Shown here piece by piece: positions 1,960-63,800 of a stretch of 64,000 nt of DNA (its first letter is position 1; each line of letters starts with the position of its first letter). The stretch is from Sphaerolaimus hirsutus. Taxonomy: Eukaryota; Nematoda; Chromadorea; Monhysterida; Sphaerolaimidae. The DNA lies in assembly GCA_964036195.1 (NCBI GenBank), contig OZ038451.1:28041927-28105926 (forward strand), in the 5' to 3' direction. Under the pieces are notes generated by a model, which had not been told where the DNA came from, did no database searches, and saw nothing but the letters and a program-made list of their open reading frames with translations. The position numbers and the translations under genes are program-made.

Positions 1960-4900
1960 GAAAAAGCGTCGCAAAGCGGATAATTCCATGCGACAGGTGC
2001 CGCCGCCCGTAAAAATAGACCACAGCCAACTTCCCACGTGCGAAAATGGCAAGCAAATCAAAGTGTACGTTAATTTTCACTTTTTTCACATTTTCCATTT
2101 TTTTATTTCAAAAAGTTTTTTTTTCAGACTACGCCGCCTCACGGCCACTGTGGATGATGAAGCTTCTCAAACTGTTATGTCCATTTTTGCTAGAAGTCCT
2201 TCTGTGCAACAATATGATTTGGCAAGTGTCCAAGTTTTTTTTCTTCAGTTGTACAGTTTTCTGGCTCAATGGAATTTGCGATTAAGGGCATCATTTTATT
2301 TGTTCAGAATTTAGACATGTTAAAACCCCTAGAATAACATAGGAGATAATTTCAATTGATCAGAGAAATGGCGCCTGTAAAATTAATTCAGGCATCCAAT
2401 TCTCAACATCGAGAAGTCCAAAATATGCCAAATTGAAGTTAGGCCCGGAAACGTCATCTGGGGCAACTCCCGCACATTTTTGATAATTTTCCATACATTT
2501 ATAGGATAGTGTCAAATTTGCCATTTTTTGAAAAAAATGCAAAAAGTTGGTTAAGGGGTCAACCTTCCACAGCTTCTTTTGTTGTGAAAAAACAACAACA
2601 ATAAATGTGAGAAGTCCACTATGGACACCGATTTCTAAAAGTCGACAAGTCCATAAATTGCCCCTAAGGCAGCCCCGTCGTCGCCGGGACATTTCCCGTT
2701 CTCGCGTGCAAGAATTCGACAAGTCCATCCCCCCAAAAAAAAACAACAGTTTTGCCAAAAACCCAAATTACCAAAGAACATTGTGCATTTGAAAGCACAA
2801 AGCCCAAAGCACTTTCAGAAGCACAAATTTGTTCGATGTAGATCAGTACATTTATCAATACAAAAAGCACAAAATGAGTTTGTGTGCTTAAAGGTGCTGA
2901 TCTAACATCGGTACTTTGAGAAGCACAAAAAATAATGTGTAGATCGATACTTTATCAGTAAAAAAATGGCTAACGCCAAACAAAAAGTGGACGCTGCCTC
3001 CACAGCAAATAGAGATGAAGTGTGTCTCTCAAATGGAAATGAAGTGCGTCTCTCAAATGGACATTAATATATATTGGATGCACAAAAGTAATGTATCATT
3101 GCTTAGAAAATGGCATACACTTCACTGATAACACACTTTACTGTGGTTACATATCCCACCTGAATAAAGAAACTATTTGTATTACATCACAAGAGTTACA
3201 TGTATTGACTGTTAAATGCACAAAAGCAATATATCATTACATCTGCATTGTGAGAAATGTCTCACATGGAACCCAGACTTTTACTTATTCAATAGTTTTN
3301 NNNNNNNNNNNNNNNNNNNNNNNNNNNNNNNNNNNNNNNNNNNNNNNNNNNNNNNNNNNNNNNNNNNNNNNNNNNNNNNNNNNNNNNNNNNNNNNNNNNN
3401 NNNNNNNNNNNNNNNNNNNNNNNNNNNNNNNNNNNNNNNNNNNNNNNNNNNNNNNNNNNNNNNNNNNNNNNNNNNNNNNNNNNNNNNNNNNNNNNNNNNT
3501 TTACTCGATTTTTGGCTACACATTTAGTCGGATCAGTTTAGTGGCACGGCCACGAAGGTGTGTTTATCCAGTGGTTTAAGTGTTCGCACCGCGCAGGTGC
3601 TAGTTGCCCGATTTGTGGATTTGATAGGCGGTACAGGACCGCAGTTCAATTGTTTTGGCGTCGATTCGCGAACGTTTTGACACGATTGTTTATGGATACA
3701 TTGTGTCGCATTTCGAGGGTTGTCGCTGGCTTTTATGTGGTTAGCTTTTGCGTGCCGGACTTGTGTCCTATGCCCAGTATGCAGCAGCTATGTGGATGCA
3801 TACTTTTCTATTGTCGGTTCGATTTTCGTGCTCATTTATTGGATTTGACACTATTTGTTCCCATCAGGTTACGAGTGCTTCAAAGGTGATATTTATTTAC
3901 ATCATCTGATGGATTTGTAGAGTAGAGTAGAGCGTGTCTTTTTGTGCATAGTGCAGATCCTACATTTTTTGTCATACAGTGGCGGTTTGTTTCGATGCAT
4001 TGAATAGCTCATATTTCAATTTGGTGCTTTTATTACTTTCTCAGCGAGTCAAATGTCAACTGGTTGATTCATTTATTATTTAGCTGTGTGTATTTATCAG
4101 TCGTTCAGATTTGAAAGCGTAAGCGGAATGCTTTCACTCTTTAATATTCGGTGCGATATTTCATTCATATTTGTCGCTTATCCAGTCGATAAAATTTCAG
4201 TGCGAGTGCTATCTATTCGGCACTGTTATCACTGCCCCAACTATCGCATCTGTGTGGATATTAATCGCGTATTTGTCTATCGAGCTAGTTATTGATTTTC
4301 ATGTCGATCAACTTCACGCGGTTTCCCGTTCTAGTTAGACTTTGTTGGTCTGTTGAAATCCGCACGTTGATCAGTCTTGTGTCTATACATATTTATTGTT
4401 TTTGTCATATTTACCTCAGTGCGTTTTGCTATTACATGAAGTGATACAATTTCGTCAAATTGTCGGTTGAGCATCCCTTGAGGTGGATAACTTATCGTTT
4501 TTTTCCATCGGAATATGGTATAATTTTCTGTAAAGCATGCGATCTGTACGGTTACGGTGCTATCTACTTGAGCATTTTTATAAGCATTGAATTTTTTCGC
4601 ATCGTAGTTAGCTTAGGTTTTTTGATGCAATACTAAGGGTGTTTGTTGCACACGTCTTGTGATGGAAAAACAGACAGGACTTTGGCGCCAAAACCGCCAT
4701 GGCGCTTTTCCTAACATCAGCGCCAAGCGCCAATGGCGCCACAGCGAAATAGCGCCAAGCGCAAAAAGCGCCATGGCGCTTTTCCATCACTACACATGTC
4801 TATCTGCCATGTCTCTCATGTTTTCTTATCTTTGTTCAATTGCATTTCGTCTAGTCATCTTGACACATTTTGGCAGCTACATATCTATTTGAATCGTTCC

Positions 4901-7900
4901 CACTTTGTTGCAATCGCTTGAAATTTGAATTCCTAGGTACGGTGTTTTTTAAACGTTTATTTTGATGTCTTTCAGCGATTTTTTGGTGCATTTTTTCTTG
5001 TCACTTTCACTTTTCCGGAATTTGTAAGATTTATTACTTTAACGCATTGTTATTTTTTAGTTTTAAAGGCTATTTTAATCGATACTTATTTTAATTTTAC
5101 ATAGGTCCCTTTTTGTATTTACCTGTGGCGGCCTTGGCGGATAATCACTGGATATGCTTTTAGATCACCACGGAAAATTAGTTTGAAATTTAGATCCTTT
5201 TTGAAATCACGCCCCGCTATTCCACTCATGTTGGCTTCCGCTCATGCCGTTGCTGTGTACTAATTCACGGCTTTTCAACGGTGAACGTGGTTTGGGTGCT
5301 TGGATTTCACGTTTGAGTAAATTTTTAAAATTTATTTCTTCACTTGTGTTTCCCCAACACTCGCGCAGTCGTCGGTTTCCGTTACTTGTCAACTTTGTCG
5401 AAACATCTCGACGAAAAATGCAGAAACCATATTGGCACCAGGGGTCTTGTACACAGGGCACCAGGGATTTGGACCCCCGCGGGGGTTCAGATAGATAGTA
5501 AATCGCGCCTCCGGAGGGATAGACAGCTGTAAAAAAAAATTTTGGCGGGGGGTTCAATATATAGGCTATTTTGAGGTTTAGAAGCTAAAAAAGGGGGAAA
5601 AATCGCTCAAAATAGGTGAAACATAGCAAAAAATAGGTTAAGAATAGGTAGAAATAGGTACATAAGCACATACCGTATTTCCTCGAAATACCCCCCCCCC
5701 TCGAAATACCCCCTCGAAATACCCCCCCTCGAAATACCCCCCCTCAAAATGGGCACTATGTATTTGTGGTCCGGCAAATGCATAACATACGTTTAAAACA
5801 CCTACTGTGTTACGTTAGAACATCGTTTATACCATCTAGGTACATCCTTATATAAGGCTGTAAAAACTTACAAATGGTGGTTATTGTCGCATTTTTCACG
5901 TTTTTCTCTCAAAATGTCCACTCTGAAAAAATAAACCCCCTGGGGGTATTTCGAGGAAATACGGTAAATAGCTAAAAATAGCTGAAAATGTGTGATAAGG
6001 CATACACATTGATGATTTGGACGGTGAAAATATATAACTAGGTATGAAAAGTAGCGATTTTGAGTGAAAATTAGGGTAAATTTCTCAAAAATCGCTCCAG
6101 GATAGATAGATAGCTGGCGATTTTTTTTTTTTGGGGGGGGGGGGTTCAGGGGATAGTAGCCAAAAATTTCGCCTCGGGATAGATAGATAGCTGAGCGGCC
6201 TCCGGGATGGATAAATAGCTGGAGCGTTTGGGGGGGGGGGAACCCCCCCCCCCTACCAGACCCCTGATTGGCACCAGGTATGAATAGCGCCAAGCGCTAA
6301 TTGCGCTCCACACACTGGATGTCAACTGTTTTGGTGTCAACTCGATCTTAGTTCAATTTAGGTTACAGGACAATTTTCAAGTGAATGTATGGCAAAGTCG
6401 AAGAGAAATTTATATTGCCATGTGCATTTGAACATAATTTCGCAGCCAATAAACTGAAAAATTATGAAAAACGCATCCGGATGTCAACTGGGCCAATGGT
6501 TTTCATAAATTTTTACTTTATGGACTGCAAAACCATGTTCAAATGCACATGGCAATATAAATTCCGCTTCGATTTGGCCGCACATTTACTTGAAAATTGT
6601 CCTGCAACCTAAATTGAACTAAAATCGAGTTGACACCCAAACAGTTGACATCCAGTGTGTGTGGTGCCAATTCCACAAGAAAAGAGCGTGCCAATTGCGT
6701 CGCGTCTAGGGTTCAAACAGGATTGTGGTCAGGATTGTTTGTTTTTGGGTGATTTTCAGGATTGTGTTTTGGGATCAGACTTGTGGACTCAGTTCTGGTA
6801 AAAGGTTTTTCTCTAATTTGCTGTAAAAAGGTTTAAGAGATGCTTGGATGTGGAAAAGTGGGATCAAATGCACACTGGAGGTTCGCTTCACATAAAGCCG
6901 GGATTACAGCTCAGCGGCGTTTGATGTGAAATGATGACGTAAAATTATGTTGTAAAATTGATTACATCAAAATAGACAGGAACAGACAAGAGACAGAAAA
7001 TGGAGGTGCAGAATTGAAATTTCAGAATTAGATAGTTCTAGTAATTGTGTGTAATGTCATATAAAAAATTAAGAAAATAATTATTATAAAATAAGTTATT
7101 AATTTTACATCAAAATTTACATTTTACATCAAAATTTTACATAAAACATTTTACGTCAACAACAAAATTTTGATGTAAAATTAATAACTACTTAAGTGAA
7201 ATAAAGTCATTGGCAAATTTAGCAAAATCTTCAGGGATTGGGATTAGGGAAATTTTTTCAGGGGATTGGAATTTTAAATTTTTTTGGGATTGGCTTTTCA
7301 GACTTTTGTGTTCGGGACTGCAAAATTCTGATAATTGCCAGGATTCGTGATCCCATTTGAACCATAGTCAGTGATTTTCAGGGGCGCCAGCACTGTGGGT
7401 TCAGATTCAATTTTCAAGTAAGCATGCTCTTCGTGCCCTGCAAACACGCAAACCCTGCAAATCTTCACGCAAATTTTAAAGATTTGTATCCATAAATATC
7501 CCCATCGTTTAACCACCCTCAAAATTTCTACTCAAAAAATAAGCCCCCTGGGAGGTAATTCGAGGAAATACGATACATTCGATACGATACATTGAGTGAT
7601 TTTGTCGAATGCTAATTGCACCTTTGAAGAAGCTTAGTGTAATAAAGTGCCTACACACACTAGTTTTCACCGTGACTTCGTGTGAAAACTGAAATTTTTT
7701 CAAATGCAAATTAATGAACATGGTTGACTGATTTTGTTTTATTTTAATTATAAATTAAATTAATGGAAGTTAAAATTAAAAATTTGAAAACTAAAACAGC
7801 ATACAAAAAGAGTAGGCTCAATGTCGCCATGTCGCATTTCAGTTTTCACATCGGTCACGGTGAAAACTAGTGTGTGTAGGGCCATTCTTGCATCTGAATT

Positions 7901-10900
7901 GAATGTCACTTCGTTGCATTTTCCTACCTCAGAGTACGTCAACAACGACGAATAAGTACTGGGAGTTGAAAAAAGTTTCTGACGAAATACTCAGCCCCCA
8001 CGAAATACTACCCCCCCTCTCAAAATTTCCACTATGAAAAAATAAACCCCTTTAATTTTACTGTCATCTCAGAATCCTCGTCGAACTCGCTGCCGGACGC
8101 CTTCCGCACGCCCTTGTCTCTGACAAAGCAATGTAAAAGAGCCAGGCATTTGACGCAAAGGATGGCGCCAAGCGCCAATGGCGCCACTATATTTTAGCGC
8201 CACGGGCCAAAAAGCGCCGTTTAGGTACATCACTGCCCAGACGTACATCCACTTTGAAATACCGTGAAGCTATATAACATATCCTATGCATGTGCCACAC
8301 ATGTGCAGCAGCATTTTTCCATTGCGACCAATGATTGTTGACATTTGCATTTTGTTATCATTCACTCGATAGACGCTCACTCCGGGGCATGCCTAATACG
8401 CACATCTGCCCGTTACGCACATTTGCCCGTTTTTTCACTTGACACTTTTTCAAGTGATGTTCAAATATGAGTGAAGTGAAAAAAAGTTGCGCAATGACAT
8501 TAGTGAACTGTTTTCACTTCATTCATATCTGAAAATCACTTGAAAAAGTGTCAAGTGAAAAAAACGGGCAAATGTGCGTATTAGTACACCCTCGCTCACT
8601 CCTGCACGCACATGCAGCGTACGAATTGCAACAACACCGCGCATTTGTCACCCTCACGCTGGGCAGGTAAGTTTGACATACACAGGGAAATATGAGCGTG
8701 TGAATGTGCGGTGAAGCGTCGCGAAGTGACTTCACGCCAACACTGCCCAACGCATCACCAAGCACCAGAGTTGGAAAAACGTATTTACGTTTACCCGAAA
8801 TACCCGGTTATTCGGGTATTTATATTTACGTTTACGTTTACGTTTTCCAAAAATACCATTACGTTTTGTTACGTTTTCCTGCCCAAAATACCTGGGTTCT
8901 AGGGAAAACGTAAAAATTATGATATTTAGTAGTTTATTAGTGGCCGCGCCCTCAGATGGAAATCACATTTCCATGATTTCTCTACAGATTTTGATCGTTG
9001 AGCACTTAAAATGATCAGAATGATGTGGCGATCCCATTAGTGCAGCGATTGGGATGATCACAAACAATAGCTAAAACATTTTATAAACTCCAATACATAG
9101 TCACCATAGTCTACCGACCATAGTCGATGCCGCACAGAGAATGTAGGTAACTGTATTTTGTCATAAACGGACAACAAATTATGAACAAAATAGTGAAAGA
9201 AATGCCATATTGATGATTAAAAATTCAACACAATTCCATTTACTCTCTCCAGATAGGTGTGGCAGATTTCACAGTATATTTGATGGAGTGTTTTTTCAAA
9301 AAAGACTAAAAACAGTTTTAAAAGTTTCAATGCACTGAAATTACTGTCTGTTCCCCTTACATCGGTGGCTGTAGAGTGACCATTTAGCCATGGGCTTGTG
9401 AAATTTGCTAAAATAATCAATTTGGGAACAGAATAATTTGAATAAAAATTATGTATAAGATTTAATTACAAAAACGTGTAATTTTTGCTCAATATTTATG
9501 TTTATCTCATCGCTGTTTGTGCATTATCATTAATGATAATGTTATTGATAATTGTTATAGTTGTCTCACTCATGTTGTTGATTATGGTGAGCATGTAGTG
9601 CTAAAAACAAGAAGATATTGCATGGAAATAAGTGATTGTTCCATCCAAAGGTGAAAATAATGGTATTTCCAAAGCACAGTGGCAAATATGACACATATAA
9701 CATTTTTACGTTTACCCTTTTTTTACGTATTCCTTGGTATTTTAAAAATACCTTACGTTTTAGTATTTATACTTTTGATTTGGAAAAGGTATTTACGTTT
9801 ACGTTTACGTTTTCTAAAAATACCAGTATTTGTACAACTCTGCCAAGCACGCTGCGCTTCCACACACATCACGAAAATCCGCGTGAAGGAACTTCTTTAT
9901 ACGGCGCGGGCGCTCAATGTTTATTAGCGTGAAGCGCGTGTGGAAGCGCCAGCGTTGTTAAGTGTCTTCCACAATATTGGAAGCGCTTGATACGCGCAGT
10001 GAAGCGAGGTGAAGCGTGTGGAAGATTTCGTGGTGCTGGTGGAAGCGCGTTGATTGCACACGCTTCACGAAACCATGTTTTGCTCTGATAGACATGTCAG
10101 ACTCACGTTGCGTCAGAGTAGGCAGTTTGTTATTGACACCACACAAGCTAGTTTTCATGATTCCAATTTGAAACTCTATCGAAATCATGTCGATCTTAAA
10201 CAGTAGTTCATGGACTGATCATTTCTGTAAACTAATAATTTCATCCAAATATTTACTAGTGCGCTGAGTCTAAGTGTCAGTGGAAGCGTCAATCAGTGTT
10301 CGCGTCGCCGTTCAGTTTTTGAATAAGTTTTCAAATTGGAACTATCAAAACTAACTTGTGTGGCCACATTGTTAGAATCGATTCAGCCCAGAGTGACGCA
10401 CCAGCAGAGAAGAAACATCGTCGATGTGCCACATTTCTGCCACACCGCAACTTTATTTGCACATCAGATTTATACTGTTTATTCTGTCATTCAATACGAA
10501 ATCTTGCCATCTGCCCAGTTGGGTAGCTTCTTTCGTATTTGGATAGATAGAGTACGCACATACATACATACCTAAATGTCTATTTGTACCTAGAGTTTTG
10601 TCTTTATTTGCAGTAATAGTGTGGCATTTTTGGCCATGAATGTGATCGATTTTCTCTGTTTCACCAATGTATTTTTACTGGCACAAAGCCAATTACTGTT
10701 CATTTATTGTTCATCAATCGTTCGTTTTTAATGATAAAAACATAGGTAATTCAATTTTATCATATTCTGGAAATCTACTAAAAAGCACCAAGATTATCAA
10801 CCGAAAATTTTGCATGGATTTGCACATAGTGCTCCGATATAACGTACCGTATTTGCTTGAATAATCCCCCTGGGGGATTATTATTTCGTCAGACTTTTTT

Positions 10901-13900
10901 GAGGGGGGAACTATTCAAGGGGGGGAATTATTCGAGGGGGGTGAATTATTGTTTCGTCAAAATTTTCAAGCATGTTTCTATCAACACATTTAATGAAATA
11001 TGCTTTATTAACACAAGAATGTGCCATTTTTGTTAATATTGGGCACACACAATTGATCAAATCTTTTAAGGGGGGAATTATTCGAGGGGGGGAATTATTA
11101 TTTCCTCACTCGTCTTACACGGGGGGATTATTCGAGGGGGGGGGGTTATTCAAGGGGGGGAACTATTCAAGCAAATACGGTATTTATTCATCCCATTCCA
11201 AACTCTCCATGTTTCGTCACAGTCAATAGACAATCGTAAATAAAAATTCCCATGGGTAGGTGTTCAATTGACCACCTGTCAAGTGCCAATTAATTGCTCG
11301 ATAATTGCATCAATTTGGTGTTTTAGTGACAATGGATTTTTTACGCAATTATTTTCACACCTATGTGCATGCGGTTTAAAAAAATAGGTAGGTAGATACC
11401 TATGTTTCGATAGGTACATATTTACATGCGATATATTTTATTTACATTTTTATGTTGTTTAGGGGTTGCTTTGTCGAGCTTATTTTTTTAAATATGTGTG
11501 CCTATCGTTGGATTTTTTCACATCTAATAAAAATTAAGTTTGTTGACTGTATCACCAATCATATCATAAGTACCTTTTACTATGCTGAAATTAACGCAAA
11601 TTTCGAATGGCTTTGGTAGCCGTGGGGTATATTCGAGTGATTGCAATAGTAACCGCAAATTTTGCACCAAAAATTGACCGTATTTAATATACAGGGATGG
11701 GCATTTTCAGTTACCGCTGGAAAAACGCGATAGCTTGAGCTACGGTTGAGCTATCGCAGTGAAATTTTAGCACAATAGAGTAGACTCCATAGGACACCTA
11801 TTCTGAAGTTTGCAACCCAAACGGCCACATTTTGGGTGAGTTGTGGAACACACAGTTTTTAGTGTAATTTTGTGACTTGACCCCCGTTATCTCAGGACTG
11901 GGGGACTATTCGAGAAAAACAAAGAATTTGGTTGTAGCCCCGACCCCAAACCCCAACATACTCAAAGGGCATCCAAATCGGCCAATGTACGACCGAATGG
12001 GACAACACCAAAGACCGGTGACCCCCCCCCCCCTCAAATGCCACCCTCGATTTATCCTATGGGTGACGCCTAGTCACAAAATTACACTAAAAACGGTGTG
12101 TTCCACTACTCACCCAAAATGTGGCCGTTTGGGTTGCAAACTTCAGAATAGGCGTCCTATGGAGTCTACTCTATTGTGTTAAAATTTCACTGTGATAGCT
12201 CAACCGTAGCTCAAGCTATCGCGTTTTTCCAGCGGTAACTGAAGATGCCCACCCCTGTATGAACGATGACTACTGTCTTTGTCATAGGTATATTTTTATC
12301 GACTGGCTTTGAGAAAACCCAGCAGTGGTGCATAGTTGTTGAAACGTATTTATGTTTACTCGATAAATACGTATACTCGCGTACTGCGTAAATACATTTA
12401 CGTTTCCTCCCGAAAAATACCGGTACTCACATACTCGCATACTTTTTGAAAGTGCGCGAGTACAGAAAACGTATTTTAAGGGGAGTGTAAATGTCATTTT
12501 GCCAGACAGAAAATGACAGACATAGGACATTTTCCTAAGAAATACTTATCAGGAGAGAAAACACATCTTTCAGAGTAAAAATTACAAAAAACACACACCA
12601 ATTTCTACGTTGTTTTGTGTGAAAAATATTCACTTTTTTGTTTTCTGTGAGGAAAAATACCTATTTTTACGTTTTCCCTGGAAAAATAATCATTTTTACG
12701 TTTTCACTATAAAAAAGTATTTTACTCACCTTTTACACACTGTAATAGTAAAAATAAAATACTTTACGTTTTCTGTACTCACGTGTGAGTAAAATAAAAA
12801 TACTTTACGTTTACGTTTACTTTTTAAAAAGTTGAGTACTTTTAACAACTCTGCAGTGGTGTAACAACATCACTTTATTTTCATCATATTATGCTAGCGT
12901 GCAAAGCGTGTGCCAAGTTGCATTTGCGGCACTTCCCTTTGATGTCATAACAATCCATTAGTATAAAAAGGTGATGTATAAAAGACGCCCTGTTGCAATT
13001 GTCTGAGATTGCACTCGTAGAAACAATGAATACATTTAAATTACAACACTGATCTCAATTAGCAAAGGTTTACCAAAGTGCATCTTTATTTGTTCAGCTA
13101 TGAGGGAATATCTCTTTGTTTTGTTCTCATCTTTAGCTCATTAATTTCCATTGTGACGCCAATTTTGCATGTGGCGTCACTTTACAAAATTGGCTTTGTG
13201 AAAATGATGAATAGGGCTTTGAAGGAACCGCGTGTGGTCATTTCTGAACGGTTTACATTTTAACACAGATATGCAATTCGTGTGTTTTGTGTGTGCTGAA
13301 TCTTACAATTCACGATAAAAACTTCTAGTGTTGGAATGGCGCCAAACATTTTAATGGCGCCCTTTTAATCTGCGCCATTATTGGAGCCTAGGGCACCTCC
13401 AGGCCCTGTAAAATGTCAAATGTCATGTTTGCCGTTTACGTTTGCCATTTTGCAGAGCATTTTCCATGACTTTTGACACTTTGCATGACATTTAACATTT
13501 GACAGGGCTTTTTACAGGGTCTGTGAGTGCCCCCAGACATACTTCTTGAATGGCGGCACCGCACCATGTTTCCATGGCGTCTCAGTCGCCCGGCACTTAT
13601 TCTGGAAAGGCACAATGACGCGTTGGCGTTGGGCGCCATATTTTCTGGCGTTTTCGCATCACTAGTGTGGTGGCGTCAGTTTTGGCGCTTTTCAGCACTT
13701 CCATGAATGATACAAATGCCCGCATGCGTGCCACTTGAGAATGGTCAATGGTTATGGTTCATAAATTATCCATTTTGCCACTCTGCGGGTGGTTGGCGGT
13801 TGGCACTTTTCCCCATTTGGAATTGTACAAAAATTGTTATATTCATCGAAATGGCAGCGATTTGCGTAATCAGTCAACAGATCTGTCAGACTTTTTCATA

Positions 13901-16900
13901 CATTTGGCTGTGGATAAATTTGTTTTTGTTTTTGCTATGAAGATCTGAAATTTTGAAACTTGAAAGAAATTATTCGTCGTTTTTACTTGTTAATCTACAG
14001 TCAATTGCTTCGTCGTCTCATTATCATCATTGCTCATTCGTTGGTCGTTTTCAGCACTTATGTAGGCCCGTCAATCTCCATTTTCAAGTGTCTCCATCAC
14101 ATGAAGCTGTTACTTACCATTTTCTTACACTTTTCATCTGGCATTTCGCTAATTTTCAGAATTTTCGTCTGTGTTTATTATGGGGGTCTCACAGATAATT
14201 TTCTCCTGTAGAATGGTTTTTTTTTTCTTAAGTTCAGAAGAACGAACTTGTTGTACTGAGCGATCAAAAATCCTCATACCTTAATCTCAAAATAGAAACT
14301 TCAAGCGCATTCAAAATCAGCCGATTACGGTAGAATTCGCAATTGCGCATGCACACGTATCTACATGAACATGACCTCAGGGCCATATGCAGTATGCACC
14401 CATAATTGGTCACGAATCATGAATAGTGTCCATGAGACAAGTGCTTCACACATGTCCACTTGTATTTGCGCACGCTGTTAATCTGCGCGGGCACAGTGCA
14501 AATGACATGATGTGGCCACTTTTTGCATTTTATTTTGACCATTGGTCACTCTGCAACCACAACAAACGCTTCCGGTCATTATTATTCGATGTTGACAAGT
14601 GACAACCATTTTGTCATTATTCGCGTGCAGTGCATGTTTCTCAAGGTGAAATAATTATTTGCACATTCGCGTAGTTATATCTGTATTTGCGAAAGTGATC
14701 AGTTTTTCGTGTAAACTGTGCATTTTGCTATTTCATTAGGTAAGGTAAATCAATATTTTGTTATTCAAATATTTACGTATAATGATCGAACTGCATCCGC
14801 ACAATTTACATATAATTTTGCAGTTTTTTGGTGAATAAATACAAGCCAGAAATTTTGCGCCAAATTCATAGTATGCCGTTCTATTAGAAGAAATACGGTA
14901 TCTACCGGTGTATTTGTTAGCACTTTCATCATAACACGTGAAGTAGATTTTTAACAACTTCCTTTCTGCCATTTATTTTAATAACAGATCCATACAGAAC
15001 GACAAAATTATATATGCTGAATTTGAAAAATAATTTCACGCAGCAGCGCCAATTATCACATCAAGCCGCAGCTATTTATTTCAGCCATCTTTTTACCGAC
15101 CCATATTTACTGTATTTCTCCTAATGGAAGAGCGCTGTTCTATTTTTTCATCAACTTTTGTTACCTGCCGTTTTAGTGGGGGTGCCGTCCTATTACATAG
15201 CAGAAATACGGAAATTGATTGTTTCATTGTAAAAATTTTTAACTTGTTTCTTTGTTATGAAGGCAAGGCTGATGAAATACTTTTTTTACCTGACAGAAAA
15301 TATACAAAAATTGATTCCAAGACAAACAAAAAAGAGTAAAAAGCCAAGCCTTTGTTTGTTTCATATGTATACTGTATAGAACTGCTCCAGACTTGGCTAC
15401 TCATAAAGTGGGGGGGGGGGAATTCCCCACTTTCCTAACACATGCATTTCCCTTAGTGCACCTTGCAATACACATCACTATGGTATTTATTCTGAAAGTG
15501 GGAAAATGCATATGGAAAGTGTTAACTGATGTCATGCAGCTCTTAAATGGCAAGTCTAGTGATGTTTAATTTTACAAGTGGCAAGCATTTTTTCCAGAAA
15601 TTTATCTATCTTAGGAATTTACTTGTCACTAGTGACTTTCCACAAAGCACATTTTTGTCACTTGTCTCAAGTGAAGTATGCTGCTGGGGCCTGATAACTG
15701 CTGTTTCCTTCAGAACATTATATTTAATAAAGTCATCAGAGCTTATCTGAACAGAGGACTTCATTCAAAATGAAACGCAAAAAATGTTGCATGATATCAC
15801 TATTCGATGTGCCTACGCACACTAGTTGACAACCCAAATTTCTAAACATGTTAGGTAAATCTGTTTTGAACACCTTTGAGTTCACCAGAATGTAGGGTTG
15901 GGACGATATGACTTTTCGATATCGATATTCGATATTCGATATTTTTTTCTGAAACTCGATATTCGATATCGATACGATATGGACCCTCGATATCGATATT
16001 CGATATTAAAAAATGCTCGATATTCGATATCGATATTTCGATATTTTCGATATTTCGATATTTTGCTTTTGGTATAGCAGAGCATATCTCATTTGGCATA
16101 TTGCATTTCCATTTGATCACAAACCCAACTGATCATCTCTACTGAAAAGTAGATGATACAAATTTAAATGGCACACAATAATCAAAATGAGAAAATGATT
16201 TAAAAATGTGACAGATGTGGTAAGGAAAAGGTGCCAGCCCCATTTTTAGGTGCCATGCCATGGTGCCATTGATGTGAATGGTTGATGTGAAGTGTTTCCA
16301 TGGTGTAAGTAGTTAATCAACATACATATACTCTTATGTGAACATCTGAGAGAGCATTTGCACAAGATTTGATGCTGCCGCAAGTGCTGAAACAAAAATA
16401 CCTGTCATGTGGGAACAAAGTGCGCGCTTGCGCGCAAAATTTGTTAAAATTGCTTATGAAATCGCCTTCTAATAGTGCCATTCCTGGCTTATTTGAAGTC
16501 AGCCCCAGGGAGTATAGAATATCGAAAATATCGAAAAAATGGTCGATATTCGATATCGATATTCGATATTTTTTCAAAATTTTCGATATCGATATTCGAT
16601 ATTCGATATGAAAAAATAGTCGATATCCGATATTCGATATTCGATACGATATATCGTCCCAACCCTACCAGAATGGGTCATTTTTTGGAGACCCTGTGTT
16701 TTTACCCTGTCGCGCATTTACTTTTTGAAGGTATTTACCTTGATCCCCTGCACATTTATTAAAACAAATATTTACCTTACATGTTGTGGATTTACCTTGG
16801 CAGGGTAGGCATTTACCCTAGAGGTAAGTTTCAAGTGGCAAAGATTTACCCTCGCATGAGTTGATTCACCCCCATGTAAAGTATAGCACGGTGAACTCAA

Positions 16901-43636: not shown

Positions 43637-44762
43637 GTGCTGATCACTTTAAAGTGTTTTTTAGAGGATCAGAAAATATTCAGAGTCAAAAATATACATA
43701 TTGTGCTATGGCAGTGCTTTATTGTAACTTTATGTTTGGATTTGGTAATGATATTTAATTAGTTTTGCGGCTATGCGTGTATTTTTGGTATTTTGGCTAA
43801 CGGTACCTAGCTAAGAGTAGGGTTCAAACGGGATTGGGATTGGAACGGGACTTTTCGGGATCGGGATCGGGATTGGTTTTTTGAGATTTCGGGATCGGGA
43901 TTGGGGTCACGGGATCGGGATCGGGATTGGCATTTTTTCGGGATCGGGATTGGGGTCTTGGGATAGAGATTTTGGCCAATGTTCTGGCATTCATAGTTGT
44001 TTATAAAGGTCTCAAACACTGTTGGATGCCAGAAAAGTGGCATAAAATGGACGCTGGGGGTTTGCGTTCACATTTTTGCATACAAAAATGTCTTTTTTTC
44101 ACGTTTTATAATTTCCACTAATTTTTCCGGGATCGGGATCCCGGACTTTGGAGTTTCTCGGGATCGGGATCGGGATTTGAAAATTTTCGGGATCGGGATC
44201 GGGACTGCTAAATCCCGGAATTTCACGGGATCCGGGATCGGGATCCCGTTTGAACCCTAGCTAAGAGTACCAAGTAGTAGTTCTCCTTTTATTGGGCTCG
44301 ATTTAGACTTCACGTCAGTAAAGTGTAAAGTAGCTAAGAGAGAGAATTTGTCATTAAGTGCTTCGTTGATAAATTTGTGTTAGATATCGCCCATTTTGTG
44401 TATTTGTCTATCTGTAATTTTGGTATGAAAATGCATCCGCACTGAACTGAAGCATAACAAATTGCATGTGAATATCTTCGTGTCGAGCTATAAATGAAAA
44501 TGTGAATATATTTCGGTTGTATATTCGTTATTTTTGTCGCTTGAAATTGAGTAGTGCAAACTGCAAATACAAATGAAGCTAGTCAAAAATTTGGTTTTGA
44601 ATTTCTTCCCACTTTTTGTTGACCCTTCCAAAGTCTAGATTTACTGGCACTTTACTGCCACCACTAATTTGCTCACTGCTTAATTAATTTTTTGCATAAC
44701 CCCAAAATTTGGCACAGATCCAAATAACTCTATTCAGCGAAAAATCTCGCCCAACTACCAAA
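43637..44762. other. Intergenic region, MMADHC to VPS53
   Basis: Contains the hAT-like element 43818-44259. The remaining roughly 500 bases before the VPS53 ATG are AT-rich, with no clear TATA box. This should include the VPS53 promoter. Confidence 0.5.
43818..44259. mobile_element. hAT-like word-armed element, GGGATCGGGA words
   Basis: TAGGGTTCAAACGGGATTGG at the left, CGTTTGAACCCTA at the right, perfect 8-bp duplication GCTAAGAG (43810-43817 and 44260-44267). Arms are GGGATCGGGATTGG words; a short non-repetitive core lies between. Confidence 0.9.
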
Positions 44763-47700: not shown

Positions 47701-50700
47701 GCAGATTATGCAGCAGATTCAGGTGGGTAGGTGTTGAGTGATGGGCCATTAGTGAGTGATACATTTTACGCATGTAAACCCATCACGCGTGTGGACCCAT
47801 TATACCCGCAGGGTAAGAAAGGGGGGTGGGTAACCGCACCAGGGGTCTCCTAGGGGGTGGGGGCTCCCCCCAAATCGCTTAGCTATCCATCTATCTGGAG
47901 TGGTTTTTGGGAAAATTTGCCCCAATTTTCGCTCAAAATCACTAAATTTCCCACCTTTTTATAGTTTTTCACCTTCGAAATCATGCTTTCTGGCTATATA
48001 CATAGTTATATACCGATTTTTTGCCATTTTATACATACTTTTGGCTACTTTTAACTGATTATTAGCGATTTTTCCCCTTTCTGCCTTCTTAACCTTGCAA
48101 AAGCCTATATATTGTGTCCCCGCCAGCCCCCCCCCAAGCCCCCCCAGAAAATTAGCCAGCTATCTATCCCTCCGGAGGAGCGATTTGCTATCTATCCAGC
48201 CCCCGCGAGGGCCAAAATCCTGGAGACCCCTGAACCGCACCCCAAATCGCCCAGCTATCTATCTATCCCAGAGGCAATTTTTTGGCTACTGCCTAGGGTT
48301 GGGAATTTCAAAATTTTCGGTTCCGGTTCTCGGTTCTCGGTTCCAAAAGATTTCGGTTCGGGTATCGGTTCTCGGTTCCTGAAAATTTTCGGTTCCGGTT
48401 CTCGGTTCGGTTCTTAAACTCGGTTCCGGTTCGGTTCTTTCGGTTCTAAAATGATCAAAATTTCGGTTCCGGGTAATAAAATAACCGGGTATCGGGTAAT
48501 AATCGGCTGAACAACAGAAAAACAATATACCCAAGTTTACATGTGTAAGTACATTGGTTCGATATTTCATACTACAGGAGCATATCACAGCTTATTATTT
48601 CATGGTAGAATGCAGAAATCAGAGTTGTTATAATAATACAGGTATTTTAAAAAAGTGTAAAAGCAAACATATACATTTTCTGTACTCGCGTACTTTCAAA
48701 AAAGGGGGGGGGGGGTTATTATTTCACAAGAAAATTTTTGAAAACCAAGTACGAAATTGTCATCTGAAACGTACGCAGACGTCGGAAAATGCAACAAAAA
48801 CTGCCATTTATAAGGTTCTGTAGACTAATATTAGTATGTAGATGGTTTTACACTGTTCTAACGTGACACCGACATTGTTTTAACGTGTGTTCTGCAGTAC
48901 ACAGAACACAAACTACAGTTATTGTCATGTATGTTCCCTTTACACTCAATTTGGGGGGGGGTATTTCGAGGGGGGGGGGTGGTTGTTTCATAGTGGTCCC
49001 GAGAGGGGGGGGTCAAACGAGGGGGGGGGGTATTTCGAGGAAATACGGTATTTATCAAAGCAATTTGATAAATATGAAGAAAATTTTTTATGTTTGTTCT
49101 TTTATTCAGGTGGGATATGGTAGATTTCATTGTAAGGTGTAATGTCGCTGGAGTATATGTGAAATTACACGCTCCCGCGCAATGATTTTGCAAACAGATG
49201 AATTTTGCAATTCTGAACACGCACCAAGATGTTCAGCTGCTGTTTAAAGGCTTAGATGTAGGTGTTGAAAAAACGCTGTTTAAAAACTTTAAGATTCCTA
49301 GAAAATTTCGGTTCTTTTCGGGTATTTACTTTGGTTCCGGGTATAAGTGCCGGTTCTCGGTTCCGGTTCGGTTCTCAAGCCCGGTTCCGGTTCTCGGTTC
49401 TCGGTTCCAAAATAGTGCTCGGTTCCCGGTTCGGTTCGGGTCGGTTCGGTTCCCCAACCGTACTACTGCCCCCTGAACCCCCCCCCCCAACCCGCAAATT
49501 GCCTAGCTATCTAGCTATCTGAAGCTATCTTTTGAGCAATTTTACCCTAACTTTCACCCAAAATCGCCAATTTTCATACTTTTTCAAATAGATTTTCACC
49601 TTCAAAATCACTAGGTCATGTGTTTTATTGTTTATTTTAAGCATACCGGCATAATTAAATGCGTCCCGGGTCTACATGCATGATGGCACAGGGCCTTGTC
49701 AAAAGTCGCTCGTAAAACCACCATGTACAACTTGGCTTGTGATTGATCAGGTTATCTATCACCTTTCTTCTCTCTTTTCAAACCTTTTCACTCAACTTTT
49801 CAACATGATCGCCTTTTGCTGAATTGTTGGATAGGTCCCATTTAGACGATGACATCAGTTTCGTACAGGGGTCTCGAATGGGAGGGGGGTTGGGGGGGCG
49901 ATTTGCTATCTATCCAACCACTTGGAGGGTCAAAATTCAAGATACCCCTGGTTTTGTAACATAAGTTCAGATCGCTACATACACTAGTTGATAGGGTTGG
50001 CCGATGTTTTTTAAACGTTTTTTTTAAAAACATCGAGTAAAAAAAACGTTTTTTTTCCAACCCTACTAGTTGACATTTGAATGTCAACTGGTTGATGTCA
50101 ATTCAGAGTTTAGTTCTCATCTTGTAGAACGATTTCCAAATGCACATACCAAAATACTGAAAAATAGATATTGCGTCATGTGCATTTGAAGATCGTTCTA
50201 TGGTGCGAGAACTGAAATCTGAATTGAAATTGACCAGTTGACATTCAAATGTCAACTAGTTTACGTAGCACCATTTTCACATGCAGATGCAAAAAATATA
50301 TGAATATTTGTGTACAGCTAACTTTTTGGGCTGAAACAGCACAGATACAGCATTTCGGACCTGGTTTACAATAGTTACTGACGATGTAGTGTAAGACTCT
50401 CAGTAATTTTCGGGGTGGGAAAAGGATTTTACATATTAGTAAATTCTGGTTCTATACTGTAAGTATGACATCACACCCCCGCTGCTCAAAAATCACATAC
50501 ATATTTACGGATGAAATTATTTTATACCAGATCAGCGTTTATTTTTTTCATTAACCCTGATAAATGACTTATTTACGATGTTAAATTGACATGTTATAAA
50601 TGATTATCGCCTTTAATGGCTGCATGGTGCCTACACACACTAGTTTTCACCGTGACTTCGTGTGCAAACTGAAACTTTTTCAAATGCAAATTAACGATCA

Positions 50701-56700: not shown

Positions 56701-59700
56701 ACAAATGTCCGAGATATGTGAAAAGTGCAGGGCAAGCTTTGTCGCCCAAACATGGCGCTGCCGGGCCAGCGCCAAACTTTAAAATGCGATTTTGAAAAAT
56801 CGAAAAATCTGGATATGTTAACTTTTGGAATGAAAGTCCCCATACTGTAAAAATAAAGTGTGCTGTGTAAATTGAGCAACAGCAACAAGAAAAAGATATA
56901 TAAATAATATTCAGTATGCGCCCTTGAATCCAATTTTCCATCGCAGAGTCCGCAGGCGCGGTGCGTCTTTCCCGGGATGACCAATTTCTAGTGTGTTCAA
57001 TTCTGGCCACCGCTGATTGGTGCGCTGAAACTACAGGGCAGTTGCATGACAAGTTGAAGGAGAAAGTGCCCCCCGATATGCACCAGCAGGTGGGTATTTG
57101 TGGTAAACGGTGGGGTTTACCGGAAATTTTCCGGTAGACTTACATAATTCAGCGTACGGTGAATTTTCAACTTTGCCATGCGGTTTACCGCAAAATCGAG
57201 GATTTTTTATTCCCCGAAATATTTACTATACACTGCCTCACTAAAGCAGTGCCATTTTTAACCCTGGTAATTGGTGGTACCGACCGACTGCAATTGGTGT
57301 ATTGATTTGAATCCGGTAAACGATACGGTGCGGTGAGCAGAACTTGTAAATGACGGTACCGGTGTGGTAAATTCTCATTGGTGTGGTGTGTTATTTGACA
57401 TTTTTATTTCTCTATACTTGTGTTCAAATTAACCCCTTCAGGTGGAGCTGTCATCGGAACAAGACCACTTTTACACGGTTGCCAGCAGCTCGCTTATATT
57501 GCTTTCTCAAGATTTGGAGGCCGCGTGCGACGCCGCACTTCAAGCCATGACCAAAATCAAGTTGGTGGTTGATTATTTTGGAAGTTTGGCGTTGCACACA
57601 CTGGGCGTCAACTGGTTTCCATGTCAATTACCATTTTAGTTGACGGATTGCAGGGCTGTTTTAAAGTGAACTGACAGTAATGTCGGGAAGGAATAAATGT
57701 TGCTATGTGCGTTTGAACACCGTTCGCGAATCGCGACCCGCCAACTAAAATCTGAATGGAAACCAGTCTGCCCAGTTGACACTAGGGTTCAAACGGGACC
57801 GCGGTCCCGGTACATGGTTCGGCAAAAAGTCGGGACTGGGGCGGTCCTGGTCCCGGCAATTTAAAAAGCCAGTCCCGGTCCCGACATTAGAAAATTTTTG
57901 GTCGCGGTCCCGGTCCGAAAAACTGGTCCCGTTTGAACCCTAGTTGACACCCGGTGTCGTTGTCAACTAGTGTGTAGGGCGTTTTGGTTTCCCAACCCCC
58001 CATTGGAAACCCCTACATTACATACACTTTGTACATTTATGATTTCTAAAATCTACACATTTTTTTCCAGCTGGAGCAGTAAAGAAACTGTGGGTGATGA
58101 AAGTAATTATGTGAGAAGTATGACGCAACAGCTAAAAGCCCATGTACCACAATTGAGAGATCATTTATTTGAGCGGAGAAAATATTTTGGACATTTATGC
58201 CTCAAGTTTGCACAGCAGGTCAGATGTTGTTTTGTATTCAGGTATTTTTCTGGTGCCGGTTCCGCAAGTGGAAAAGTTAATAGTAAAGAGTTAAGAGTTG
58301 ATTAAAATGATAAATGATAAGTTAAGAGTAAAGTTAAAAGTTAAGAGTTGAGTAAAATCATTTGTCGTTTTACTCAACTCTTAACTTTACTCATAACTTG
58401 TCATTTGTTATTTTACTCAACTCTTAAGTTTTAACTCTTAACTTTTCCACTTGCGGAACTGGCCCCTGTTTATTCAGTGGGATGAAAATGTTGAAGGGAA
58501 TCGATTGTTATTGTCAAGCTCACGTTTGTCGCTGCATAGTGTAGGCACTAGTTCAACGATCATACTGATCCCACTGCATATCAAAACATTCGAAAAAGTA
58601 AACTTGTTTTATAGTTTTGGACGTTCAAAATTGGCATCATATTTTAGATGGTTTCAACGGAAAATTTCGAAAAATCAAGAATCGGCCTGGAACTCATTTG
58701 AGTTGACTGGAATGAGTTATTCTTACTCACCACCGTCACCGTTATTCTGTAGTTGACTTTAGGGTTGGGAATCCGACCCGACTCGAACCCGGTACCCGCA
58801 CACTTTTTGGAACCGAAACCCGATACCCGAACCGGATACACGCAAAAATTTTGGAACCGATACCCGACCCGAAATTTTACGGTCCCGATACCCGAACCCG
58901 AAAATTTTGAGATTCCCAACCCTAGTTGACATACATTTCATTCCAGTGGACTCATGCATTCAAAGTTGATTTATGTATTTATTAATTGAGGTTTGTAAAA
59001 AAAAATTTTGGGCGGGTACTGTTGTCGGGTATGGAGTTCGGGTTCAGAAGTTAAGTTTAGTAGAGTCGGGTTCGAGAATTGGGTTTCGGTTCCAAAAATC
59101 TACAGCTGTCGGGTTTTGGTCGGATCGGGTCCGCAACCCTAGCAGCCACAGCAACCCCCCCCCCCCGCAATTCTCAGTTCTGCACCAAATTCCTATCACA
59201 CTTGTTCCGCTGCAAACCAGTCTCAGTACACGGGGCGGAGCAACTTTTATTGGATACGTACGCGCTAAAAACTTTCCTACTTTCGATGCCGTGCGTGGGT
59301 AGCGCTGTGGCGCCTAAACCGCCAGTGGCGTATACGAAAGTTGTGGAAAAGGCAATGATTAAGGCGGAGATGGTTTTGAAGGTGTGTGCGGGTTATGGTA
59401 GTGTTGGTTTGAGGGTTATGGTAGGTTGATGTAAGGGTTATTTTAGGTTGATTTGAGGGTTATGGTAGGTTGATTTGAGGGTTATGGTAGGTTGATTTGA
59501 GGTTATGGTAGGTTGATCTGAGGGTTATGGTAGGTTGATTTGAGGGTTATGGTAGGTTGATTTGGTGGGTTGGTTTTTGCCAATTGTGGACAATTATTGG
59601 GACAATTAGCATTGCAAAGATCTCTGGGAGATTTGTATTTATCGGAAAACTGATAAATATAAATCTCTGGGAGATTTGTATTTATCGGAAAATTGATAAA

Positions 59701-60724: not shown

Positions 60725-60732
60725 TATAAATA
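60725..60732 (+). promoter_or_regulatory. TATA-like box of the cullin-repeat gene
   Basis: TATAAATA about 110 bases before the ATG at 60835. The distance is long for a simple leader, so the call is tentative. Confidence 0.35.
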
Positions 60733-60834
60733 GATTTCTAACTTCGTCCACCGCTAACAACTACACACTTACCCTCACTAAATCGACTTTCCAACTAGAT
60801 TTCTAAAGATCTTCAATTGCCCTGTCAACTAAAT

Positions 60835-63800
60835 ATGGATGGACTCACTCCGGAACGTTTAGCGGAACTTTTTGATCCGAATAGACTTTCCACGTGGCGC
60901 AGGAATGATTTTCAAATGAAATTCGATAAATATTGGCCGTTTATTGAGGAAAAAGTGGCACATTTAATGAATCCCAGTGAAGAGAATGATGTTACTTTTG
61001 ACAGCCTTTACAGGTGGGTTTTTTAAACCATTTTGGGACATTTTCCCCGTCTTTTTGTGCCTTCTTCAAGTATGTGCCGGTCTCCAGTACTCCCAGAAAT
61101 TTTACAGCTATCTTTTCCTCCAGAGGAGCGATTTTATGTCTATCCGATTCGGATTCGGATACATTAGTCATTAAGATTAGGATAGATAAACATCAGATTT
61201 GGATACGAAAAATAAGATTTGGATACGCAATTGACACTTTGCATGACACTTTTCATTTGACTTTAGACACTTTACATTACATTTGACACTTCCCATGACA
61301 ATTGAAATTTGATTTTGCATTTGACACTTTACTGGACTCGGGACTGCCCCCAGCGTTTTTTAAAAACAAAACACAATTTATTAGTTAAAAAACCGCTTGT
61401 TGAGCATTGTCACTTTATACACTTAATCCATGCCAAACTTAACACTTTATCACACTTTACCCACTTAACCGCAGGGGTATGTACGAGCTAGTACTGGCGG
61501 CGGGCGTCAGGGAGCACCCCCACCAACACACGGAAAATTGCATCTGCGCGCAGACTGTTTACGACATCTTGGCCGACTTGTTGAAAGTGCACGCGCTCAA
61601 TTTTGCTAAGGTTGAGGGGGGGGTATTTAAGGGTGACAGGGGTCTTGTAGATTTGGACCCCTGCGGGCCTTCAGATTGGTAAAATCACTCCTCCAAAGGG
61701 ATAGATAGTTGAAGCTTTTTTGGGTTCTTCGGGTTAATTATACAGGCTATGGTGGTGCGGGGTTCAATATAGCGCCTTTCTACCCCCCCCCCCCAAACCG
61801 CTCAGCTATCTATCTACCCCGGAGGCAAAATTGTGGGCTACGAACCCCCCACCCCCAGAAAATTTTCCAGCTATTTATCTGTCCCTCCATTGTAGCGATT
61901 AGCTACCTATCCAACCCCGGTTGGGCCTCTGCTCTGCGAGACCCCAGGGTGCAATTTTAATTTAAAAACTTAATTTAATTTAAAAACTTGATTTAATTGA
62001 AAAACTTAATTTATTTTAAAAACTTAATTTATTTTAAAAACGTCATATTCAGACATTGCACCAGGCGGAAGTAAACCAGAGTGCGAGCGCCCTTTTAACT
62101 GCCTACGCTGGCAGTCATCGTGTGTTTGATGTGGCCATTTCTATGATGAACGACGCTTTTTTGTTTGTTTCTTTTTTATTTATTTTAACGCGTCATTTTT
62201 TTGCTTTCTTACTTTTGTGGTTTCTCCGGAGAATACTAAATCACGATCAAGACCTTAAATGAGGTGATACTTATTTATAGTTTTGGATATTCAAAATCGG
62301 CGTTACCTATTTATTTTAGATCGCAACTGGTCATGTTAAGAAAATTATTTTGAAGCGCCGACTTCGAGCCTCTGTGTTGGTGTTTTTTATTGTGCAAAAA
62401 AACTGAAACTTTGCCAACTTTGCTGTAACAGGCCAGCCGGTTTACTGAATTCATTCCTCCAACCCCCCCTGGTGGCAGTCCCAAGCCCTGTAAAGTGTAA
62501 AGTAAAGTGTCAAATGTAAAGTCAAATGCAAAGTAAAGTGTCAAATGTGAAGTCAAATGCAAAGCAAACTGTCAATTGTCATGCAAAATTCAGTAATAAA
62601 ATCTTTTCTTTTTTTGTTGATTGACACTTTACTTTGCATTTGACTTTACATTTGACACTTTACTTTACACTTTACAGGGCTTGGGACTGCCCCCTGGACT
62701 AGACCCCTGTTCCAAACACCGAACATTTCGCGTTTTTCCCTCGCAGCTACTTGAACTCCAGATATGCGAATGACATCGGCAAACATGGTCCTGTTTATCA
62801 CGTGAGCCATTTAATTTTTCATGCACGATTTAATTTAATTTCAGTAAACTGAAATTTTTCAAAGTTTAAATGGAATTTAAGTTTACTGGAATTAGGTTTT
62901 CACCAATTGCAGTTGACGGAGAGTAAAAAACTCATTCCAGTAAACTCAGTCAAAGCTCGGGCTCTAATCAGGGACGTATCCAGGATTTTTGAGCGGGGGG
63001 GGGCTGCTTGTTTACTGAGGCCGGCGAGGGGGGGGGTTCAGCCCCCCCCCAGGAAAATTTTAGCTACATAATGGCTGAATGGCGCCATTAGTAGGCGCCA
63101 CGCCATGGAATGCTGTATATGTAAGTAAATATACATACAAAACAGCGAACAGTTCAACATTGAGTGTATTTATAGCGATTTGCGGCCACATGGAGCAAAT
63201 CTGATGACAATACCTTATGTCTAGTGAAGAATGCGCGCTAGCGCGCAAAATTTTTGATGCTGACGTTGAAAAAGTCGCATTTTCCGGTCACTTTCTGGTC
63301 TCGCCCCGGCAGGGGGGGGGCTGCAGCCCCCCCGCCCCCCTGGATACGGCCCTGGCTCTAATGAACAGTCACAAAACCTTCAAAAAAATAAATCTTGCCT
63401 AAATCTGGTTTATTTTAATAAACTTGATTAAAATTACCCAAATGTGCTTCAGACAATCTGACATTTTGCACTTGAGCATTTTTAAGGCAGTAGGGTGAAA
63501 CATCGCTGAACCAGACCCTTCAAATACAGTTTTACATTTTACACAATTTTGCCTAAATTCTCAGCTCGGCTTGTGGACTTGGCAGCGATATGTTCTCACC
63601 GATTTACAAGCGCGTTTGGTAAAGGCTATAATTGATACGGTCCCAACTTCGCTCGAACACCCTATAGAAGATCCTTTGGTGAATGCAATCAAAGTGACCG
63701 TAAACTCGTTTCGCAATGTGGCACAGAAGTTGGACCAGGAACAGTGGCTTTTGGATGTTTTTGAGGAGCCGCTGTGTCGCGGGTGGATTTTGGATATTGG

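What the first reader, a model, noticed from the sequence alone, without database searches (positions are those of the whole stretch)
4657..63354. A set of hAT-like elements whose arms are drifting short sequence words, different in each element
At least 16 elements have hAT-like ends and an exact or 7-of-8 target duplication of 8 bp. In many the arms are not unique sequence but 6-14 base words repeated with variation and arranged as an inverted pair: CGATAT (15893), CGGTTCTCGG (48294), GGGATCGGGA (43818), CCCGATCCCGA (40582), CGGTCCCGG (57783), ACCCGATACCCG (58760), TTTACG (8766), ACTCGTTTACT (12331, 18294), AAAATAAAAT (34037), TTTTTAAACG (41809, 49992). The termini are conserved while the arm words change. 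That suggests a process that keeps generating palindromic word arrays behind a fixed terminus, for instance slippage or gene conversion in hairpins during transposition. I know of foldback elements with tandem-repeat arms (such as Drosophila FB) but not of a series like this.
Basis: partly seen in the sequence, partly recalled or inferred. Interest (0 to 1): 0.85.

Follow-up and report, generated by a model that had tools for sequence, protein, structure and literature searches.

The report
hAT elements with transposase-binding word arrays
These are small jumping-DNA elements of a well-known kind (hAT), and the repeated short words behind their tips look like docking sites of their movement enzyme; the words differ mainly because the elements belong to different families, not because they drift within one.

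Summary
The elements are real: 17 window elements have hAT-like ends, 13 with an exact 8-bp target duplication, and 30 of 30 copies examined of the 15893 family (window copy included) have exact duplications. In the 15893 family the arms carry fewer base changes than the interior (variants shared between copies: 4 in 333 arm columns, 48 in 429 interior columns); what varies in arms is mainly whole word units gained or lost. Several 'different' words belong to one family read in opposite directions. In 6 of 10 word families the words run on the same strand in both arms (43818: 273 direct vs 11 inverted shared 7-mers; 48294: 358 vs 5), so they are not inverted pairs. Elements with the 8766 and CGATAT words carry hAT dimerisation domains, and a 6,006-bp element with an exact duplication, an intron-split BED finger and a hAT domain has arms homologous to 12331 and 18294. 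Best reading: subterminal binding-site arrays for BED-finger hAT transposases. Of residual interest: the strand polarity, and a tip change (CAA/GGG, both ends) on conserved arms.

The parts
8766..9842 (.). hAT MITE, ends CAGAGTTG, words TTTACG/AACGTAAA, TSD CCAAGCAC; family C
9332..9478 (+). decayed remnant of hAT C-terminal dimerisation domain inside the 8766 element (stops inside)
   Evidence: tblastn, 68% over 50 aa to the L012 domain, E 1e-13
12331..12853 (.). hAT MITE, D family (ends CATAGTTGTTGA / CAGAGTTGTTAA), TSD CAGTGGTG; both arms match the 6-kb D element
18294..18812 (.). second D-family MITE, TSD 7 of 8
15893..16667 (.). hAT MITE, tips TAGGGTTGGGAC, words CGATAT/TCGATATT, TSD CCAGAATG
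34037..35037 (.). hAT-like element, tips CAGGGTTGG, AT-rich words AAAATAAAAT, TSD CAAATGAC
40582..40932 (-). GGGATC-word MITE in reverse orientation (probably same family as 43818), TSD 7 of 8
41809..42467 (.). hAT-like MITE, tips TAGGGTTGG, words TTTTTAAACG, TSD GGTTCGAT
49992..50065 (.). 74-bp member of the 41809 family, TSD CTAGTTGA
43818..44259 (+). GGGATCGGGA-word MITE, tips TAGGGTTCAAAC, TSD GCTAAGAG
48294..49462 (+). CGGTTC-word element, tips TAGGGTTGGGA / TACGGTTGGGGA, TSD CTACTGCC; its middle matches only part of the copies and may be nested sequence (inference)
58760..58924 (-). short member of the 48294 family in reverse orientation (words ACCCGATACCCG), TSD 7 of 8; an 810-bp member with exact TSD is L086
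57783..57942 (.). CGGTCCCGG-word MITE, tips TAGGGTTCAAAC, TSD GTTGACAC
5439..6266 (.). hAT-like element CAGGGGTC without clear word arrays, TSD ATTGGCAC
47840..48232 (.). CAGGGGTC element, related to 5439, TSD AACCGCAC
31428..31797 (.). hAT-like element CAAGGACGTATC/CAGGGACGTATC, TSD GTAGCACG
62969..63354 (.). CAGGGACGTATC element, 68% to 31428 (reverse), TSD GCTCTAAT
4657..4792 (.). weak hAT-like element TTGTGATGG/TAGTGATGG, TSD 7 of 8

Best explanation
The elements are non-autonomous hAT transposons (MITEs) of several distinct families. The arm words are subterminal repeats: arrays of short sites bound by the N-terminal BED zinc finger of the transposase of that family, while the tip is read by the rest of the enzyme. 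Each family has its own word because BED fingers of hAT transposases have diverged in specificity; within a family the arrays are held by selection for mobility and change mainly by gain or loss of whole units. Shown: 8-bp duplications, tips, arm conservation in two families, related or identical arms on elements that carry hAT domains (for 8766, 12331/18294 and CGATAT), one full-length element with a BED finger and both arms. Inferred: that the finger binds the words, and that the same-strand polarity marks left from right end, as asymmetry does in Hermes.
For: TSDs: 30 of 30, window copy included; 4 of 4 in 8766 copies; 5 of 7 E-family loci have both ends found, and 5 of those 5 are exact. 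Transposase link: 28 hAT dimerisation-domain matches; 10 of 28 loci have hAT tips with an exact TSD around the domain (A: L009, L010, L014, L028-L030, L033, L036; C: L012, L015), L019 (B) one mismatch. Their arms carry AACGGAAA (A), ATATCGA (B), AACGTAAACGTA (C), TTTTCGAA (E) words. A C arm matches the window 8766 arm (94% over 152 bp), and 8766 keeps a decayed dimer domain. D element, 6006 bp, exact TSD CCTTGGCG, dimer domain 61.9 bits, BED 24 bits over cut-off 20.6. Constraint in 15893: shared variants 4/333 arm columns vs 48/429 interior, Fisher p 4e-8; singletons 33/333 vs 74/429, p 0.012; 43818 arms 0.010 and 0.013 vs 0.043 interior. Literature: hAT-derived BED DNA-binding domains have diverse specificities, usually CGG/CGC, some AT-rich; four hAT-encoded ones match the subterminal regions of their transposons (PMC8097297, passages); Ac binds AAACGG subterminal repeats (PMC3260210, passages); Hermes subterminal repeats are BED sites and its ends are asymmetric (PMC10368747, passages and sections 8, 14).
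Against: No transposase was tied to the GGGATC, CGGTTC, CGGTCCC, AAAATAAAAT or TTTTTAAACG families. In the 8766 family the left arm is not more conserved than the interior (0.039 vs 0.032; right 0.011; 5 copies). Arms of the 58760 family vary (0.078 and 0.053 substitutions, 3.1 indels per 100 bp in the left arm; 6 copies). In 15893, indels are more frequent in arms (0.28 and 0.42 per 100 bp) than interior (0.16). Copies compared were best-scoring ones, so identity is biased upward. D arms show no strong strand preference (55 direct vs 33 inverted). Single D exons gave no Pfam BED or core match; the BED match needs two exons joined by me and covers profile positions 15-44. The RNase-H model PF14372 found nothing (which says this does not show absence). 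Only one BED-word pair is available, so coevolution is not tested.
Confidence: 0.85

Rival explanations
1. One reading: slippage or gene conversion in hairpins during transposition continually creates new palindromic word arrays behind a fixed tip.
For: Whole-unit gains and losses in arms. CGATAT, TTTTCGAA and TTTTTAAACG words are near-palindromic. One tip, TAGGGTTCAAAC, occurs with three words (43818, 57783, B family). Arms of the 58760 family vary.
Against: Arms conserved in base sequence in 15893 and 43818; 6 of 10 families have same-strand arrays; left and right arm distances do not correlate; several word differences are orientation differences of one family.
Confidence: 0.05
2. Modular exchange: tips and word arrays are two separately recognised modules that have been recombined between hAT families, so that one word occurs with several tips and one tip with several words.
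For: 15893 (TAGGGTTGGGAC) and the B family (TAGGGTTCAAAC) have homologous arms and differ at bp 8-10 at both ends (L019 versus 15893); tip TAGGGTTCAAAC also stands before the 43818 and 57783 words.
Against: Three-base tip changes may arise by substitution under selection; no recombinant junction was shown.
Confidence: 0.25
3. Foldback-type elements with long tandem-repeat inverted arms (like Drosophila FB).
For: Tandem words in both arms.
Against: The inverted part of the word elements listed is short (8-18 bp by the extension score there); words are mostly direct; hAT domains and 8-bp duplications are present.
Confidence: 0.02

Closest known systems
Maize Ac/Ds (hAT), AAACGG subterminal repeats (PMC3260210, passages)
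   Same: 8-bp duplications, short tips, non-autonomous derivatives, repeated 6-bp word that binds the transposase; family A words here (AACGGAAAACGG) contain AAACGG
   Different: probably an animal genome (inference), longer regular arrays, several families with other words
Hermes (hAT), BED-bound subterminal repeats (PMC10368747, passages and sections 8 and 14)
   Same: repeats behind the tips, asymmetric between ends: LE STR2-7 antisense, RE STR1-5 sense. I read these as counted inward from each tip (LE-STR1 is said to align with RE-STR1), which makes them same-strand over the element; the paper does not say so in the parts I saw
   Different: Hermes sites are 4-bp AAG(T/C), scattered; here 6-12 bp words in near-tandem arrays
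hAT/CGGBP BED-type DNA-binding domains (PMC8097297, passages)
   Same: most proteins prefer their own motif, mostly with CGG or GCGC, some AT-rich, and for four hAT-encoded proteins the motif matches the subterminal regions
   Different: no binding data for this genome

Membership tests
hAT superfamily | 8-bp target site duplication | tested here: met
   (short 58760 copies weak: 0 of 5 exact)
hAT superfamily | short terminal inverted repeats of YAGRG-type | tested here: met
   the consensus form is recalled
hAT superfamily | transposase with C-terminal hAT dimerisation domain on elements with the same ends and arms | tested here: met
   8766 (C), 12331/18294 (D), CGATAT (B, tip differs); not found for GGGATC, CGGTTC, CGGTCCC, AAAATAAAAT, TTTTTAAACG families
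hAT superfamily | N-terminal BED zinc finger | tested here: met
   D element only, two exons joined by eye at GT-AG, 24 bits vs 20.6, profile 15-44 of 44
hAT superfamily | RNase-H catalytic core with DDE residues | tested here: inconclusive
   PF14372 no match; no Pfam match for a mid-element D ORF; residues not assigned
MITE (non-autonomous) | multi-copy, non-coding, ends shared with a coding element | tested here: met
   (40 candidate places scored in each); shared ends and arms only for the 8766 and 12331/18294 families
Subterminal transposase-binding repeats | short motif repeated within about 200 bp of each end and conserved between copies | tested here: met
   exceptions: left arm of 8766, arms of 58760
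Subterminal transposase-binding repeats | bound by the transposase and needed for mobility | not testable with these tools
   needs binding and excision assays
Foldback elements | long inverted arms able to fold back | tested here: not met

The most novel reading that the evidence does not exclude
In at least six hAT word families of one genome (8766/L012, 43818/40582, 48294/58760, 57783, A, and more weakly CGATAT) the docking words are arranged on one strand through both arms while the tips are inverted, so that the transposase can tell left from right by word polarity; and tip and word act as two separately evolving modules, with CAA/GGG tips switching at both ends on conserved arms. This would make the end asymmetry known from Hermes a general, sequence-readable rule of hAT elements.
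Probability: 0.3. Interest if true: 0.55.

Novelty: new member of a known kind. Interest (0 to 1): 0.35.

Why it matters
It turns a puzzling set of 'drifting' arms into a readable record of transposase specificity: each family keeps its word, and many copies per family show which positions are held. One genome with several hAT families, deletion derivatives that still carry the hAT domain, and one full-length element is a convenient place to test whether word polarity encodes end identity and whether BED finger and word change together.

Tried and rejected
Foldback arms and hairpin generation: rejected on short inverted ends, same-strand words and arm conservation. A search for BED fingers gave 8 matches, 7 on contig C1 (6 within about 23 kb) and 1 on C6; I looked only at the C6 one (L089: ORFs, tandem repeats, Pfam) and saw no word array or clear ends. 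A search with the D BED exons gave 139 matches at E up to 1, 10 of them at E up to 0.001, with 150 of 230 candidates scored; from these I fetched three places. L091 is a second D 5' end (D right arm 89% over 220 bp); L092 is a tandem pair of BED exon sets lying between two GGGATC elements and not tied to any ends; L093 gave nothing clear. PF14372 gave nothing. Rfam (gathering threshold) and tRNA scans of the window gave nothing. Five paper searches (lists of 9, 20, 20, 1 and 15 papers, out of 9, 22, 867, 1 and 65 that held the terms) listed no paper whose title or shown abstract start states same-strand subterminal repeats as a rule; three papers were opened, by passages and, for one, two sections. 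In the 58760 family only 10 of 40 scored places match both arms of the short window element in one piece; of three of the others that I fetched, L086 is an 810-bp element with both arms (91% and 92%) and an exact duplication, and L084 and L085 run off the stretch fetched. L002-L008 were fetched but not used beyond the table. I did not name the organism.
Full report
What was checked. The window is C2:28041927-28105926 of an unnamed 348-Mb genome in 762 contigs. Two exons near 46330-47730 match Pfam Vps53_N (68.3 and 37.8 bits; a third peptide, from about 60834, matched nothing), so it is a eukaryote, probably an animal (inference).

Elements. The scan gave 38 places with inverted ends and an exact 8-bp duplication, against 1-5 in five Markov controls; 12 of the 38 involve the satellite at 23962-25937 and 4 lie inside word arrays. 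Fifteen elements from that scan (12 exact, 3 with one mismatch) plus 40582 and 49992 from the finding's list make 17: 13 exact and 16 of 17 within one mismatch as run; 40582 has one mismatch once its end is placed at 40932 (same call). Controls: swapped flanks 0 exact and 1 near match in 272 pairs; five shifts of the flanks gave 2, 0, 0, 0, 0 near matches of 17. Since the elements were picked by their duplications, the independent test is elsewhere in the genome: in the 15893 family, with ends set by tip match only, 30 of 30 are exact (40 candidate places were scored, the best 30 fetched; L037 is the window copy and L040 shares its duplication). In other families I fetched fewer, with the duplication helping to set the ends: 8766, 4 of 4 exact; 43818, 4 of 8 exact, 2 of 8 with one mismatch, 2 of 8 none; 58760, 0 of 5 exact, 2 of 5 with one mismatch. 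A longer 58760 member, L086 (810 bp), is exact.

Families rather than a drifting series. BLAST between window elements joins 40582 with 43818 (reverse orientation), 48294 with 58760 (reverse), 12331 with 18294, 41809 with 49992. Repeated words inflate such matches, but tips and end positions agree. The GGGATCGGGA/CCCGATCCCGA and CGGTTC/ACCCGATACCCG words of the finding are thus probably one family each. The ten listed words fall to about eight families, some related: 8766 and 12331 share 81% over 52 bp of one end, and the C and D dimer domains share 59% over 93 aa.

Arms within a family. In 30 copies of the 15893 family, substitutions against the majority base are 34/5320 (left arm), 239/12828 (interior), 7/4478 (right arm). 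Arm indels are more frequent (0.28 and 0.42 per 100 bp, interior 0.16); in the rows printed (12 of 30) the recurrent one is a whole 7-bp unit. Variants seen in two or more copies: 4 in 333 arm columns, 48 in 429 interior columns (Fisher p 4e-8); singletons 33 and 74 (p 0.012). Dropping L040 leaves the shared counts unchanged and makes the singletons 30 and 73. That shared variants are much more depleted in arms than singletons is what constraint on mobile source copies would give. The 43818 family agrees (arms 0.010 and 0.013, interior 0.043; 9 copies). The 8766 family agrees only for its right arm (0.011; left 0.039, interior 0.032; 5 copies). The short 58760 elements have almost no interior to compare, and their arms vary (0.078 and 0.053; 6 copies). 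Left and right arm distances do not correlate in 15893 (-0.22), so there the arms do not change together.

Word direction. One search examined 21 elements; 17 have words. Seven-base words shared between arms (direct/inverted): 8766 143/39, 12331 30/28, 18294 16/38, 15893 490/209, 34037 250/167, 40582 37/10, 41809 174/160, 43818 273/11, 48294 358/5, 57783 15/5, 58760 27/0, 49992 1/10, L009 635/12, L033 576/12, L013 336/36, L012 157/40, L019 412/96. Without words: 5439 38/32, 47840 10/12, 62969 33/27, 31428 2/43. Direct exceeds inverted in 15 of the 17 and by threefold or more in 11 of 17; they are not independent, several being one family. Strand composition explains part of it: in shuffles of L009 arms the means are 148 direct and 19 inverted, and for 34037, L033 and L013 some shuffles reach the direct count. 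In one search D is 55/33 and three E elements are about equal (147/189, 227/208, 173/155; palindromic word).

Transposase. Pfam Dimer_Tnp_hAT gives 28 matches in the genome. One search finds hAT tips with an exact duplication around 10 of the 28 (families A and C) and one mismatch for L019 (B). Words in their arms: A, tips TAGGGTGTCAAC, words AACGGAAA; B, tips TAGGGTTCAAAC, words ATATCGA; C, tips CAGAGTTG, words AACGTAAACGTA; E, tips TAACGATGGCAAA, words TTTTCGAA, with both ends found at 5 of 7 loci and an exact duplication at 5 of those 5. A C arm matches the window 8766 element (94% over 152 bp), and 8766 keeps a decayed dimer domain at 9332-9478. D is a 6,006-bp element (C3:40743-46748) with duplication CCTTGGCG whose two arms match window 12331 (82% over 108 bp and 73% over 148 bp) and 18294 (79% over 134 and 75% over 63). 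It encodes a hAT dimer domain (61.9 bits; three other D ORFs sent alone matched nothing) and, across one intron joined by me, a BED finger (24 bits, cut-off 20.6). Whether it is active is not known. No transposase was tied to the GGGATC, CGGTTC, CGGTCCC, AAAATAAAAT or TTTTTAAACG families.

Tip change. B arms are homologous to the 15893 arms (L016, 84% over 182 bp; L019, 82% over 156 bp at one end and 76% over 226 bp at the other), while bp 8-10 of the tip read CAA in B and GGG in 15893, at both ends. Here the arms are the conserved part and the tip changes.

Mechanism. hAT BED domains bind subterminal repeats (PMC10368747), Ac transposase binds AAACGG (PMC3260210), and hAT-derived BED proteins prefer different motifs, mostly with CGG or CGC, some AT-rich; for four hAT-encoded ones the motif matches the subterminal regions (PMC8097297). 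I saw passages of these papers, and sections 8 and 14 of the first. Arm CpG content here is higher than interior in most of the 21 elements (for example 9.7 vs 1.4 per 100 in 15893; 31428 is an exception, and the shortest elements have no interior). This fits arrays of BED sites, each family with its own word. In Hermes the end asymmetry matters for activity (PMC10368747 section 14); the same-strand arrays here may serve the same purpose (inference).

Verdict. Ordinary in kind, unusually clear in form: hAT MITE families with subterminal transposase-binding arrays.

Noticed in passing
window 46330-47730, perhaps to 60250: Exons of a Vps53 gene (Pfam Vps53_N on two exons); later exons and the elements in its introns were judged by eye only.
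   Followed up: partly
window 23962-25937: Two-kilobase satellite of a 12-bp unit TTTCACTTGACA, low GC.
   Followed up: no
window 3006-3579, 22567-23256: Repeated sequence with near-palindromic arms (CAAATGGAAATGAAGTGCGTCTCT), two copies in the window (by eye); the first holds 200 masked bases.
   Followed up: no
window 8397-8582, 30645-30845, 45303-45655: Element type with ends TACGCACATCTGCCCGT / AACGGGCAAATGTGCGT, several copies, inverted halves.
   Followed up: no
window 5694-5966, 10850-11180, 41185-41545, 54615-55030: Abundant elements bounded by ACCGTATTTCCTCGAAATACCCCCC-like ends and their inverse, rich in C and G runs (by eye).
   Followed up: no
G000:C1:7466186-7488779: Six BED finger matches within about 23 kb on one strand, perhaps a domesticated array.
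   Followed up: no
L092 (C1:12780500-12789500): Tandem pair of BED exon sets lying between two GGGATC-word elements.
   Followed up: partly
window 35354-37920: Probable serine protease gene, with a GDSGGP motif read by eye in the sequence; not tested.
   Followed up: no
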